IMG/VR virus record: IMGVR_UViG_3300050821_018050
Span: 95,806 to 159,805 of that record
Length of the DNA stretch: 64,000 nt
Direction: 5' to 3' (one strand)
Source: a virus
Shown: piece by piece, positions 33,278 through 43,789 of the stretch
Layout of the letters: each line of letters opens with the position of its first letter
How positions within the stretch are numbered: position 1 is the first letter of the stretch
Notes under the pieces: generated by a model
Databases searched by the model: none
Seen by the model: only the letters and a program-made list of their open reading frames with translations
What the model was told of the DNA's origin: nothing
Made by a program: the position numbers and the translations under genes

Positions 33278-33558
33278 TTTCTTTTTCCTGAATCTAGTAT
33301 AGCACAAAGTCTAATTTTATGCCAGTAAATTAAACCCATTTTTTGAATTAACTGTAATCTGAAATCTTGTAAATCTATGTAACCCATAGCACTAACTTTA
33401 AATGAAATTGACATTGCCTTTAGATAAGTTTTTTCATTAAAATACATCATCATAAGCGTATTTACATCTGAAGGTTTGTGGCCCAAATTCGATCTATTCT
33501 TTGCTATATCGTTTATAAGGTTACGAACTTTATCATTCACGACTCGCTCGCGCTTCAT
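33274..33558 (-). CDS. Hypothetical protein, 94 aa
   Basis: Helical and basic: NDKVRNLINDIAKNRSNLGH, then RLQLIQKMGLIYWHKIRLCA. ATG at 33558 overlaps the Gly-rich gene by 26 bases. No family recognised. Confidence 0.7.
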   Translation of the reverse strand: MKRERVVNDKVRNLINDIAKNRSNLGHKPSDVNTLMMMYFNEKTYLKAMSISFKVSAMGYIDLQDFRLQLIQKMGLIYWHKIRLCAILDSGKRK

Positions 33559-34039
33559 GAATAAGCATAATTTTGTATGCCTGCATGGGTTCTAAGTGTT
33601 GCATTAAAATTTTCATCCATTCTCGAATATCAGCATAATGATATTTATAATCTTTATTCATTTTGCCCTGAATGGCTATTCTTATAGGTCTAGGAGCGCA
33701 ATTAATGGCTACACCAATATCGGTGCCACTGATATTTCCAGTCCAATTAGACCAAGAACTTCCTCCTCCACCGCCACCACCTTGAAAAGACATATAGCCA
33801 GATCCGCCACCAGCCCAACCAGATCCGCCACCAGCCCAACCAGATCCGCCACCAGCCCAACCAGCTCCACCTCCTCCGCCAATAACGGTATAAGTTGAGC
33901 CGCCTGTGCCGAAATTGGCAGCCGTATTTGCTCCACCACTGATTACTGGCCCAACTGGATGAATAGCTGGAGTTGGAACCCATGCTGGCTTATTCTGAGT
34001 TTTTTTATTCAGATATTTTTGAATCTTCTTGAACGCCAT
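33533..34039 (-). CDS. Gly/Trp-repeat protein, 168 aa
   Basis: Basic N-terminus (MAFKKIQKYLNKKTQNKPAW), Pro/Gly linker, then three exact GWAGGGS heptads (about 60-82) followed by FQGGGGGGGSSWSNWTG, and a folded C-terminal 70 residues (IRIAIQGKMNKDYKYHYADI, REWMKILMQHLEP). The Gly-Trp tract may self-associate or bind a surface. Unlike the Gly-rich adhesin it sits on the leftward strand among accessory genes. Its start overlaps the upstream gene by 35 bases. Confidence 0.75.
   Translation of the reverse strand: MAFKKIQKYLNKKTQNKPAWVPTPAIHPVGPVISGGANTAANFGTGGSTYTVIGGGGGAGWAGGGSGWAGGGSGWAGGGSGYMSFQGGGGGGGSSWSNWTGNISGTDIGVAINCAPRPIRIAIQGKMNKDYKYHYADIREWMKILMQHLEPMQAYKIMLIHEARASRE
33800..33862 (-). 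repeat. Three tandem 21-base repeats (GWAGGGS)
   Basis: Three identical in-frame units of AGATCCGCCACCAGCCCAAC plus C (plus-strand sense). Slippage would change the heptad number without a frameshift. Confidence 0.9.
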
Positions 34040-36347: not shown

Positions 36348-37022
36348 ATGCGAAATATTATTCCAATTCCAAAAGAAGACAGATTAACTATATATAACGT
36401 AGATTTAGATTCCGCTAAACGTTATTACGTATATGCTCATATTGATAATAACGGGCATATTTTTTATATTGGCAAAGGTACCGGCAAGCGAGCATTTGAT
36501 GGTAAAAACAGGAATTTTATCTGGCAAAGAATCGCAAAAGAAGGCTTTTCTGTTAACATTATAGCTGATTTTATGAATGAAGAAGATGCCTATCTAACCG
36601 AAATGCATTATATCGATAAAATCGTTCCAAAAGCTAATTTAGCAAAATATGGATTTTGCGGGGCAATAGATCAAACTAACAGAAACCCACGTAAACAGTC
36701 TATTGAATCTAATTTAAAGCGTAAAAAGGCATGCACTGATTTTTGGATAGATAATCCAGAAAGAAGTATTAGAAGCAAAAAATTTACCAAAGAAGGTAAT
36801 CCATTTTTCGGTGCAAAGCATTCCAAAGAGAGTGTAATAAAAATGAAAAAATCGCACTTTTCTCCTATTGTGTGTATAAATTTATTGAATGATGAAGAGT
36901 TTACCGTATCCGGCACTAGAAATGCGGCAGAATTAACTGGAATTCCGCGTCAAACCATAATGAGGCTGTTAAGTAATCCCAATACCAAACAAAAAGTGAA
37001 ATGGAAGTTTAAAAGAATATGA
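36348..37022 (+). CDS. GIY-YIG homing-type endonuclease, 224 aa
   Basis: GIY-YIG core at about 25-45 (RYYVYAHIDNNGHIFYIGKG) with TGKRAFD after it and Glu in LTEMHYIDKI at about 85. C-terminal FTVSGTRNAAELTGIPRQTI then KWKF (about 185-222) is a NUMOD1-type DNA-binding motif. It overlaps the lysozyme start by 4 bases, so translation is coupled. Probably a free-standing homing endonuclease next to the lysis gene. Confidence 0.85.
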   Translation: MRNIIPIPKEDRLTIYNVDLDSAKRYYVYAHIDNNGHIFYIGKGTGKRAFDGKNRNFIWQRIAKEGFSVNIIADFMNEEDAYLTEMHYIDKIVPKANLAKYGFCGAIDQTNRNPRKQSIESNLKRKKACTDFWIDNPERSIRSKKFTKEGNPFFGAKHSKESVIKMKKSHFSPIVCINLLNDEEFTVSGTRNAAELTGIPRQTIMRLLSNPNTKQKVKWKFKRI

Positions 37023-37472: not shown

Positions 37473-37751
37473 GTGGACGATTACTACGGCTATTCATATT
37501 CTAATAAGCCGGGAGATCATGACCATAGCAAAACCATACTAAAGCACAAAGACAGAATTAAAGAATTAAAAAACTCTGGATTACTATCTAAAGCTCAGAA
37601 ACAAGAGATCGAAGAACTTGAAAATAAAATAGCAGAAATCAGAAATCGGTGTATACACGATTATCAACCTGTGATTTTAGCCCAGTACCGTAGAAAATAT
37701 TGCACTAAGTGTGACCAAGAAGATTACAATTACGATTATCGCAAAGATTAA
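37473..37751 (+). CDS. Small zinc-ribbon-like protein, 92 aa
   Basis: GTG start one base after the lysozyme stop, with TAAGG upstream. Tyr/Asp-rich N-terminus, helical middle (LSKAQKQEIEELENKIAEIR), and C-terminal RCIHDYQP ... YCTKCDQED that could bind zinc. Ends 4 bases inside the opposing PDZ gene. Function unknown. Confidence 0.75.
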   Translation: MDDYYGYSYSNKPGDHDHSKTILKHKDRIKELKNSGLLSKAQKQEIEELENKIAEIRNRCIHDYQPVILAQYRRKYCTKCDQEDYNYDYRKD

Positions 37752-38233
37752 GTACCATCGTAGCAAATTTTATCGCGGATCATAGAGAAGCCTAAGATTT
37801 GGCCGTTACGACGAACTAAAAAGGTCACCTTAGTTCCAGGATCTCCTCTAAGATCTGCTTTAGGGCCATCCAGTAATTCATCTCCGGGAAGCATCCCGGC
37901 CTTATGGGCGGGATATCCTGGAACGACTTCAAGTATGGTTCCAAAAACGTCGTGAGTTAACCCAATCCCACCATACCAATATTTACATTTCGGAGATTTT
38001 TTAACTTTTTCTTTTACAGCTACCTTTTTAGCTGGCCCATCGACAACCGTAACTTCCATTTTTTCTGCGGGTTTTGGTAAAATTTTTTCATGGATTTGAG
38101 GGGCGTTTTGACTATTATTTGATTGCCCCTTTTTTGTTGGCATCATGAGGGGATGGTACAAAAATATTAAAGATGCTACAAGCATATGCAAGATACAGCT
38201 TGCAATGATATGCCATCTTAGATATTTTTTCAT
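37748..38233 (-). CDS. Membrane-anchored PDZ-domain protein, 161 aa
   Basis: N-terminal membrane helix (about 8-30, HIIASCILHMLVASLIFLYH), a Pro/Lys-rich linker (about 55-85) and a C-terminal PDZ domain (about 90-160): GGIGLTHDVFGTILEVVPGY with PAHKAGMLPGDELLDG, then VTFLVRRNGQILGFSM. PDZ domains bind C-terminal or beta-strand peptides; in DegP/HtrA one sits in the same chain as the protease. Here the protease is the adjacent gene, overlapping by 4 bases, suggesting a split two-protein HtrA-like unit with the PDZ part tethered to the inner membrane. Confidence 0.8.
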   Translation of the reverse strand: MKKYLRWHIIASCILHMLVASLIFLYHPLMMPTKKGQSNNSQNAPQIHEKILPKPAEKMEVTVVDGPAKKVAVKEKVKKSPKCKYWYGGIGLTHDVFGTILEVVPGYPAHKAGMLPGDELLDGPKADLRGDPGTKVTFLVRRNGQILGFSMIRDKICYDGT

Positions 38234-38925
38234 AGATTGCTGACAGCTCTTAAAAATGTGGTCAATTTTAACAGATCGACATATCCGCCTAGATCGTCTT
38301 GTTCTTCCATATGCCAGGTAACAACGCCAAGAACATGATCTTGCGCATCTACCATTGGACCACCAGAATTTCCAGGAATGGCTACATTATTAAAAACAGG
38401 TGTGTAGCTTGTGTGTCCATCTTTATCGATATCAATTTTGGACCCCAAAAGATTCGCTTCAAACATACTTAAGCCTAACCCTGCCGGGTAGCCATAATAA
38501 CGAATTTTTTCCCATTGGTATACACTTGATAATGGTGCAATATTATAATAACCATCGAATCCTACAGTTTCTAAAGCACAAAGATCTAATTCTACCGAAT
38601 ATGCAATGATTCTGGCAGTCATTGGTTCACGATGGACATAATTACGAACGTAAGCGTATTGTGAAACTTCGCCCAGGCATACGTGATCATTAGTAATAAT
38701 AACCTTTCGTCCATTCCCAAGCAATACTTGGAATCCACTTCCAGCCCAAGTGTGGTCGCCTTTAACCCCTGGTTCAGGCCTATGTTCAACGAAATAAACA
38801 TCTTGTGCTGCCTTATTGAACCAAATCTGTTCTTTAGAGCGGCTGATCTCTGGGGCGTGAGCGCAACTGATCTGCAAGAGCATAAAAGCGAGTACGTAGG
38901 TCCATTTACGAGATACCCTTACCAT
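38230..38925 (-). CDS. Exported trypsin-like serine protease, 231 aa
   Basis: Signal peptide about 1-24 (TYVLAFMLLQISCAHA); Cys21 could be lipidated, though Gln at -3 is unusual for a lipobox, and AHA-Pro could be a signal peptidase I site. Catalytic triad visible: His81 in VIITNDHVCLG, Asp114 in VELDLCALE, Ser187 in IPGNSGGPMVD. This is the S1/DegP-type protease core without its PDZ domain, which is encoded by the next gene. Probably acts in the periplasm or at the outer membrane. Overlaps the upstream gene by 7 bases. Confidence 0.85.
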   Translation of the reverse strand: MVRVSRKWTYVLAFMLLQISCAHAPEISRSKEQIWFNKAAQDVYFVEHRPEPGVKGDHTWAGSGFQVLLGNGRKVIITNDHVCLGEVSQYAYVRNYVHREPMTARIIAYSVELDLCALETVGFDGYYNIAPLSSVYQWEKIRYYGYPAGLGLSMFEANLLGSKIDIDKDGHTSYTPVFNNVAIPGNSGGPMVDAQDHVLGVVTWHMEEQDDLGGYVDLLKLTTFLRAVSNL

Positions 38926-39428
38926 GTTAAACCTGCCGTTAAACCAAATTGTTGATCTTTGAGTAAGGTATATGCGCCAACCGTAATAGGCCCAAACGCC
39001 CTAATGTGAGCCTGTAATCCAAAATTTGTATTTGACATATTACTGAGTTGGGTCCCGGCCATTCCACCAATATAGAATTTACCGGCACCGCTTTCAGTAA
39101 TTTTTTCGGTCATTACTTTTTTTGTTTCGTCTAATACTTTAGAAATTTGATCATCTGTTTCTTTAGTAGAAGTGGACTTGTCTGTAATTTCAGTGATTTT
39201 TGTTTTGGTACCATCTTTTGTGGTGGTTTCAGTAATCTTGATGTTTTTGTCTTTATGAACATCTTGTTTAGTGTCTTTATTTTCAGTCTGTACTTCATGG
39301 ATAACGGTCTGAGTAACGGTTTTGGTTATGGTCTTAGTGGGGACCGAATACCATCCTGCGCCAAACACTACCACAATAAATAATGCAGCCAATATTTTAC
39401 TTAACATACTTTGTAGATTTATAGTCAT
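38919..39428 (-). CDS. Membrane-anchored periplasmic protein, 169 aa
   Basis: Membrane helix at about 11-27 (ILAALFIVVVFGAGWYS), a long Lys/Thr/Asp-rich stalk (TKTITKTVTQTVIHEVQTEN, KDGTKTKITEITDKSTST) and a C-terminal glycine/aromatic region (FYIGGMAGTQLSNMSNTNFG, FGLTAGLTW) that looks like outer-membrane beta-strands. It could span the periplasm. First gene of a three-gene overlapping set with the protease and PDZ protein. Function unknown; spanin-like tethering is possible. Confidence 0.7.
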   Translation of the reverse strand: MTINLQSMLSKILAALFIVVVFGAGWYSVPTKTITKTVTQTVIHEVQTENKDTKQDVHKDKNIKITETTTKDGTKTKITEITDKSTSTKETDDQISKVLDETKKVMTEKITESGAGKFYIGGMAGTQLSNMSNTNFGLQAHIRAFGPITVGAYTLLKDQQFGLTAGLTW

Positions 39429-42927: not shown

Positions 42928-42950
42928 ATAGCTCTTCCTGAGCTATAAGT
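42928..42950 (-). terminator. Hairpin after subtilisin gene
   Basis: TATAGCTC and GAGCTATA form an 8-bp stem with a 5-base loop just downstream of the subtilisin stop on the minus strand. No U-tract follows, so it may attenuate or process the transcript between protease and primase. Confidence 0.45.
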
Positions 42951-43789
42951 CAACGAGCACTGATTTCTTCCACTTTGCCGCCCGAAATTGTCTTTCCATG
43001 AAGGGAATTAATTTGTGTTACGTGCTTTACGATAAAATCTTTTATTTGCACTGGAGAGATGTCTGGGTACCTTGACAAGACTTCTGCTGCAACGCCCGAT
43101 ACAAAGGCCGCCGCTTGCGAAGTACCGCTCATTTTGCCATAGCGACCTCCTGGGAGAGTACTTAAAATGTCTTGCCCTGGAGCGGCGACATCTACAGATT
43201 TATGACCCCAATTTGAAGATGCTAAAAGTTCATTTTTATTATTTATAGACGCTACGGTAATAATATTTTTTAAACCTTTTCCTTCATAAGCTGCGGGGTA
43301 GTATCGATTATCTGATAAATCAGTATCTTTATGATCATTACCTGCCGCTGCCACGACCAAAATACCTTTATCCTGCGCACGTTTTATTGCCTGGAACTCA
43401 TCTTCGGAATATTCCGGGCCTCCGCCCGAATAATTTATAATCTGAGCACCGTGATCTATGGCATAATTCAATGATTTTATAGTATTAGATAAATTTACGC
43501 TACCGTCAGCGGTTACATCGTAATATCTAACTGGCATAATTTCTATATCTTTAGCCATTCCTGCAATTATACCAGCAATATGTGTACCGTGACCGTGGAA
43601 ATCTACTATATTAGGCGAATTTGATACGAAATCCCAGCCAGAGTTGCCTTGATGGTCTTTCCATAGTTTCTCTTTGAGGTCGGGGTGAGTAATATCTACG
43701 CCGGTATCTACTACCGCAACGATCACCTTGTGACCTTGGATTGCAAACGAAAACGGGCTACCAAAAAATAGAATGAGCAGTAACGCCAT
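42950..43789 (-). CDS. Secreted subtilisin-like serine protease, 279 aa
   Basis: Signal peptide about 1-19 (LLLILFFGSPFSFAIQG). Full catalytic triad: Asp28 in VAVVDTGVDITHPDL, His67 in DFHGHGTHIAGI, Ser224 in MSGTSQAAAFVSG; oxyanion Asn151 in VAAAGND. No pro-domain is evident between signal and catalytic domain, which is unusual for secreted subtilases. Expected to act outside the cytoplasm, yet it lies in the DNA replication cluster between recA and primase. Could degrade periplasmic or surface proteins, or exclude other phages. Confidence 0.9.
   Translation of the reverse strand: MALLLILFFGSPFSFAIQGHKVIVAVVDTGVDITHPDLKEKLWKDHQGNSGWDFVSNSPNIVDFHGHGTHIAGIIAGMAKDIEIMPVRYYDVTADGSVNLSNTIKSLNYAIDHGAQIINYSGGGPEYSEDEFQAIKRAQDKGILVVAAAGNDHKDTDLSDNRYYPAAYEGKGLKNIITVASINNKNELLASSNWGHKSVDVAAPGQDILSTLPGGRYGKMSGTSQAAAFVSGVAAEVLSRYPDISPVQIKDFIVKHVTQINSLHGKTISGGKVEEISAR

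What the first reader, a model, noticed from the sequence alone, without database searches (positions are those of the whole stretch)
37748..38925. Split HtrA/DegP-like pair: protease and PDZ protein as separate overlapping genes
An exported trypsin-like protease with a full triad (His81, Asp114, Ser187) lacks a PDZ domain, and the next gene, overlapping by 4 bases, encodes a membrane-anchored PDZ domain. In DegP the two are one chain. A phage-encoded, membrane-tethered envelope protease would be unusual; roles could be receptor shaving, lysis control or exclusion of other phages.
Basis: partly seen in the sequence, partly recalled or inferred. Interest (0 to 1): 0.75.

Follow-up and report, generated by a model that had tools for sequence, protein, structure and literature searches.

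The report
Phage TonB-like PDZ protein beside protease
A large phage related to Myxococcus phage Mx1 carries an exported serine protease and, overlapping it, a small membrane protein that looks like a shortened PDZ domain on the membrane anchor of the bacterial TonB/TolA force-transmitting proteins, so the pair is probably not one DegP protease cut in two.

Summary
In detail: an exported S1-type protease (His81/Asp114/Ser187) and an N-anchored PDZ protein overlap by 4 bases. The 'split DegP' reading is not supported. Ten relatives form a protease family separate from 18 phage HtrA-like proteases (support 97/96), with invariant cysteines two residues after the catalytic His and Asp. Six other Mx1-related phages carry the protease without the PDZ gene; the protease's conserved neighbour is the upstream gene. 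I found four PDZ relatives on other phage contigs. None is next to a protease, though all four contigs encode one. Their PDZ resembles Prc/CtpA, lacks the groove helix and is bracketed by two invariant cysteines. All five share a transmembrane helix with Ser-x3-His (2/155 in other N-anchored or signal-bearing ORFs), and four have a TonB 'D-box'-like strand. This is the layout of TonB/TolA transducers with a PDZ head in place of the usual end domain. No ExbB/TolQ homologue was found in nine phage records, so the host's motor is the likely partner. The proposed role, usurping or jamming the host Ton/Tol motor, is inference only. Bacterial genomes could not be searched for this architecture.

The parts
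38230..38925 (-). Exported S1C (trypsin/HtrA-fold) serine protease, 231 aa, no PDZ; HxC/DxC phage family
   Evidence: PF13365 1.1e-9; AF2 pLDDT 84.5; Foldseek best Deg9 and DegS-deltaPDZ; family alignment A5; tree
38683..38685 (-). codon of catalytic His81; Cys83 (38677-38679) two residues on
   Evidence: both invariant in A5; HxC in 10 of 11 proteases from phages related to Mx1 or carrying the PDZ gene, 0 of 18 phage HtrA-like
38584..38586 (-). codon of catalytic Asp114; Cys116 (38578-38580) two residues on, putative disulfide partner of Cys83
   Evidence: both invariant in A5; the disulfide is inferred
38365..38367 (-). codon of catalytic Ser187 (GNSGGP)
   Evidence: invariant in A5
37748..38233 (-). 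TonB/TolA-like anchored mini-PDZ protein, 161 aa
   Evidence: five-member family A7; PDZ matches in all five
38156..38227 (-). N-terminal transmembrane helix (residues 3-26) with Ser12-x3-His16
   Evidence: AF2 helix 3-26; Ser12/His16 invariant; background 2/155
38042..38056 (-). D-box-like strand EVTVV (residues 60-64); TonB has QPISVTMVTPAD
   Evidence: sequence comparison with PMC10907165; [VI]T[MVI] strand in 4 of 5 members, assigned by eye
37760..37987 (-). Cys-bracketed mini-PDZ (Cys83-Tyr158) lacking helix alphaB
   Evidence: A7 invariants C83, W86, GGIG, YPA, AG, GD, GT, R153, C157; 11-13 residues shorter than DegQ between GD and GT; AF2
38230..38233 (-). ATGA overlap: PDZ start codon over protease stop codon
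38919..39428 (-). Upstream gene overlapping the protease by 7 bases: N-TM, charged repeat region, C-terminal beta segment ending in an OMP-type beta-signal; conserved neighbour of the protease
   Evidence: A6 alignment of 12 homologues; Mx1 homologue E=1e-7; next to the protease in 6 phages

Best explanation
The locus encodes three overlapping envelope genes: a conserved trans-envelope protein, a periplasmic MarP/DegS-like serine protease locked by a putative Cys83-Cys116 disulfide, and a TonB/TolA-like adaptor. The adaptor has an N-in transmembrane helix with the Ser-x3-His motor-docking motif, a D-box-like strand, a disordered linker of about 55 residues, and a Cys-bracketed Prc-type PDZ lacking the groove helix. 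Most likely the adaptor docks on the host's ExbB/TolQ through Ser12/His16 and on ExbD/TolR through the strand, in place of TonB or TolA. It would then either deprive the host of Ton/Tol function late in infection (weaker outer membrane for lysis, exclusion of TonB- or Tol-dependent phages) or pull on a periplasmic partner held by the PDZ head. The protease acts in the same compartment as a separate enzyme. Shown: gene structure, homology, invariant residues, separate inheritance. Inferred: export, disulfides, motor docking, outcome.
For: Ser12 and His16 are invariant in five divergent proteins (31-38% identity to the window protein) on five contigs, against 2/155 other ORFs with an N-terminal hydrophobic segment. 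In TonB and TolA these are the structurally most conserved residues of the SHLS motif and contact ExbB/TolQ, and the His is essential (PMC12215075). A [VI]T[MVI] strand follows the helix in 4 of 5, like the TonB D-box (PMC10907165). Transducers with the same plan and a non-TonB head (vWA) are reported (PMC12204202). AF2 gives TM, disordered linker and beta domain. No ExbB/TolQ homologue in nine phage records, so a host partner is implied. In the window and in G026 the gene lies next to the endolysin region. The protease exists without the PDZ gene in six relatives.
Against: No binding data. Only Ser and His of the four SHLS residues are kept; the +11 Leu is present in one member and the final Ser in none. 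The D-box likeness was judged by eye and is weak in L084. Pfam reports no TonB domain. The SxxxH background is drawn from ORF calls in related phage loci, not from bacterial membrane proteins. Bacterial genomes were not searched for this architecture. The PDZ model is low confidence (pLDDT 54). Presence of an S1 protease in 5/5 PDZ-bearing contigs leaves room for joint function.
Confidence: 0.45

Rival explanations
1. Split HtrA/DegS: the anchored PDZ protein is the regulatory or substrate-delivery subunit of the protease, working in trans as the PDZ does in cis in DegP/DegS.
For: 4-base overlap; HtrA-type fold close to DegS-deltaPDZ; every one of five PDZ-bearing contigs also has an S1 protease, Fisher p=0.04 against relatives, 0.07 without the window.
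Against: Adjacent only here; six related phages have the protease and no PDZ gene; PDZ closer to Prc than DegP; groove helix missing; protease family is separate from phage HtrA-like proteases; in HtrA-like viral records any PDZ is in the same ORF. Co-occurrence with the three newly found contigs is weaker when contig length is allowed for (p=0.06).
Confidence: 0.17
2. Passive regulator: the PDZ protein is an ordinary membrane-tethered PDZ adaptor binding host envelope proteases such as Prc/CtpA or RseP; the Ser-x3-His has nothing to do with Ton/Tol motors.
For: PDZ head resembles Prc and RseP PDZs.
Against: Does not explain an invariant Ser and His four apart in a hydrophobic helix across five divergent proteins, followed by a D-box-like strand.
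Confidence: 0.25
3. Lysis cassette: the upstream trans-envelope protein, the protease and the PDZ protein together disrupt the outer membrane at lysis, in place of or beside spanins.
For: Convergent with the lysozyme gene; upstream protein has an N-TM and an OMP-like C-terminus in 12 homologues; in G026 the PDZ gene is one gene from an endolysin-like gene.
Against: No significant spanin match (phrog_214 E=0.07); the genes follow the replication genes on the same strand; expression timing unknown. It overlaps with the best explanation rather than excluding it.
Confidence: 0.2

Closest known systems
TonB / TolA force transducers
   Same: N-in transmembrane helix with Ser-x3-His, D-box-like strand, disordered linker, small periplasmic head
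   Different: Head is a PDZ, not the TonB/TolA C-terminal domain; phage-encoded with no motor genes; only half of SHLS kept; shorter overall
vWA-headed TolA/TonB-like transducers (PMC12204202)
   Same: Same anchor-linker plan with an unrelated head domain
   Different: Those are bacterial and were found beside motor genes; PDZ is not mentioned in the paper
Prc/CtpA (S41) PDZ domain
   Same: Best curated match of the head in most members, including MXAN_5808-type
   Different: No peptidase domain; helix alphaB missing; two bracketing cysteines
MarP (Rv3671c) and DegS-deltaPDZ
   Same: Envelope serine protease of the HtrA fold; MarP E=1.8e-10, DegS-deltaPDZ among top folds
   Different: Single anchor or signal instead of MarP's several TM helices (own knowledge); HxC/DxC cysteine pair
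DegP/DegQ
   Same: Fold of the protease domain
   Different: PDZ not in the same chain; protease in a separate clade from phage HtrA-like proteases; PDZ not DegP-like

Membership tests
HtrA/DegP | Trypsin-like domain with His-Asp-Ser triad | tested here: met
   PF13365 and invariant triad; fold
HtrA/DegP | C-terminal PDZ in the same chain | tested here: not met
   No PDZ in the 231-aa protease
HtrA/DegP | PDZ of HtrA type with peptide groove between beta strand and alphaB | tested here: not met
   Prc-type by best model in most members; alphaB missing in all five
TonB/TolA transducer | N-terminal TM helix with Ser-x3-His of the SHLS motif | tested here: met
   5/5 members
TonB/TolA transducer | Complete SHLS (Leu at +11, Ser at +15) | tested here: not met
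   Leu only in L073, I/M/M/F elsewhere, final Ser absent (sequences). PMC12215075 notes these two are less conserved in TonB
TonB/TolA transducer | D-box / motor-box strand after the TM | tested here: inconclusive
   [VI]T[MVI] in 4 of 5, judged by eye against PMC10907165
TonB/TolA transducer | TonB/TolA C-terminal domain fold | tested here: not met
   PDZ instead
TonB/TolA transducer | Binds ExbBD or TolQR and transmits force | not testable with these tools
   needs crosslinking and phenotype tests
PDZ domain | Significant match to PDZ profiles | tested here: met
   5/5 match PDZ_2 and PDZ_6, best 3.1e-9
MarP family protease | Passes the NCBIfam cut-off | tested here: not met
   40.4 bits, cut-off 250

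The most novel reading that the evidence does not exclude
A family of large phages encodes its own TonB/TolA-like transducer with a PDZ head, which takes over the host's proton-driven ExbBD or TolQR motor to apply force to, or to withhold it from, the cell envelope during infection.
Probability: 0.3. Interest if true: 0.85.

Novelty: new variant of a known kind. Interest (0 to 1): 0.58.

Why it matters
The papers read here describe Ton/Tol-type motors driving TonB, TolA or vWA-headed transducers, all bacterial; PDZ is not mentioned in the two checked for it. A phage protein carrying the motor-docking helix would show a virus tapping proton-driven envelope mechanics, a new route to weakening the outer membrane or to excluding rivals, and it is directly testable in E. 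coli K-12 with two point mutants. The separate protease family explains why a PDZ-less exported protease recurs in phages related to Mx1.

Tried and rejected
Single-sequence scans with the protease, PDZ and helicase found no viral relatives, because the chosen peptide words were not conserved. The one genome-contig scan gave only L038, which is RpoC (a chance IDKDG match), so bacterial origin of the PDZ family stays open. Relatives of a virus record cannot be drawn from GTDB. Alignment A5 was too diverse to scan with. PLSDB has no match for P0002; GenBank phage records hold only partial, PDZ-level matches for it and for L065, in unannotated records. I considered that the protease C-terminus (VSNL) could be a PDZ ligand; it is not conserved in other PDZ-bearing phages and the groove helix is missing, so I dropped it. 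PADLOC matches (RT-Protease, subtilase) reflect shared peptidase domains, not a defence system. Foldseek with the PDZ model gave only weak hits (best E 0.07, CtpA), as expected from pLDDT 54.

Full report
WHAT IS THERE. On the - strand, three genes follow a DnaB-type helicase: P0003 (38919-39428), the protease P0001 (38230-38925, 7-base overlap) and the PDZ protein P0002 (37748-38233, 4-base ATGA overlap), ending against a + strand gene of unknown function and a lysozyme. The window is the last 64 kb of a 159.8-kb virus record. Its nearest named relative is Myxococcus phage Mx1: DNA polymerase 33% identical, similar order of replication genes.

THE PROTEASE. Trypsin_2 E=1.1e-9, no PDZ. AF2 pLDDT 84.5; Foldseek E=1e-10 to Deg9, and DegS-deltaPDZ among the top hits. 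In the related phages L044, L045, L048, L049 and L066 the homologue lies directly after the P0003 homologue; in L046 and L047 it lies upstream of the polymerase. Seven of 14 related records have a PF13365 protease; Mx1 has none. Across eight sequences the invariant residues include the triad and Cys83/Cys116. The HxC...DxC pair is in 10 of 11 proteases from this group and in 0 of 18 other phage HtrA-like proteases. A maximum-likelihood tree separates the two sets with 97/96 support; branches are long and the window's is the longest, so its exact place inside the family is unsure. NCBIfam's best match is MarP (1.8e-10, far below its cut-off), ahead of DegP (1.2e-5).

THE PDZ PROTEIN. Direct searches found one relative, in G026 (E=7e-24 by BLASTP). 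A DNA pattern for C..W[FY]GGIG over IMG/VR gave three more: L073 (33.6-kb contig), L077 (167.5 kb) and L084 (110.7 kb); apart from G026 itself, the other matches were not PDZ relatives. The five share M1, S12, H16, C83, W86, GGIG, YPA, AG, GD, GT, R142, R153, I156 and C157. All match PDZ models. The best curated models are mostly Prc-type. Between GD and GT there are 14-16 residues where DegQ has 27, which removes helix alphaB. AF2 shows TM 3-26, disorder 35-81 and a beta domain without that helix, at low confidence.

TONB/TOLA LIKENESS. Among 160 ORFs with an N-terminal hydrophobic segment in the fetched phage loci, seven carry Ser-x3-His in or near it: the five PDZ proteins, and two others where it lies at the edge of a signal-like segment (Fisher p=3e-8, treating related ORFs as independent). 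Ser-His of SHLS contacts ExbB/TolQ, is the best conserved part of the motif, and the His is essential (PMC12215075). The D-box QPISVTMVTPAD binds ExbD as an added strand just after the TM (PMC10907165). Counterparts here are EVTVV, HVTVD, KVTIV and AITMT in four members. PMC12204202 reports transducers with the same anchor plan and a vWA head, so changing the head has a precedent. No MotA/ExbB family protein was found in nine of the phage records.

ARE THE TWO GENES A PAIR? They are adjacent only in the window. In G039 they are 5.6 kb apart on the same strand, in G026 about 25 kb apart, and in G038 and G040 far apart on linear contigs. PDZ is absent, by a five-sequence profile, from six related records that have the protease. 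All five PDZ contigs have an S1 protease, but G038's is of a different type. Against relatives lacking PDZ (6/14) p=0.04, or 0.07 without the window. The three newly found contigs against 14 chance-match contigs give 3/3 v 0/14, p=0.0015, weakening to 0.06 when contig length is allowed for. So there may be some link, but not an obligate split enzyme. The conserved neighbour pair is P0003-protease, in six phages.

LIMITS. Many records are fragments, so absences are soft. Export, disulfides and docking are inferred. Bacteria were not searched for the PDZ architecture, so whether it was acquired from a host, and whether hosts have it beside motor genes, is open.

Noticed in passing
38919-39428 (-) and homologues in A6: Family in 12 phages including Mx1: N-terminal TM with a FGxGRY..P.K-like border, charged region with PDGT, and a C-terminal beta segment ending in an aromatic residue with alternating hydrophobics, like the outer-membrane protein beta-signal. 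It may bridge both membranes in one chain; a spanin-like role is untested.
   Followed up: partly
42950-43789 (-): Second exported serine protease, subtilase S8 (E=1.5e-54), between the primase and RecA-like genes. Homologue in L044; an S8-like exported protein lies about 0.7 kb from the PDZ gene in L084.
   Followed up: partly
L003:25080-25643, L046:21460-22047, L052:20743-21423, L054:21079-21735, L088:2364-2936, L090:896-1393: ClpP-like proteins: after the helicase in several relatives (Mx1, L052, L054), and beside the S1 protease in L088 and L090. Serine peptidases recur in this part of these genomes.
   Followed up: no
37473-37751 (+): Small Cys/His-containing protein next to the lysozyme, with homologues in L044 and L045 at the matching place.
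   Followed up: no
L077:1612-4081: Nicotinamide phosphoribosyltransferase-like and adenylyltransferase/NUDIX-like genes beside the PDZ gene, like the NAD-salvage genes annotated in Mx1.
   Followed up: no
36348-37022 (+): Homing-endonuclease-like gene (phrog_314, 6e-14) just upstream of the lysozyme gene.
   Followed up: no
33533-34039 (-): Gly-rich protein with three or more repeats of GWAGGGS.
   Followed up: no
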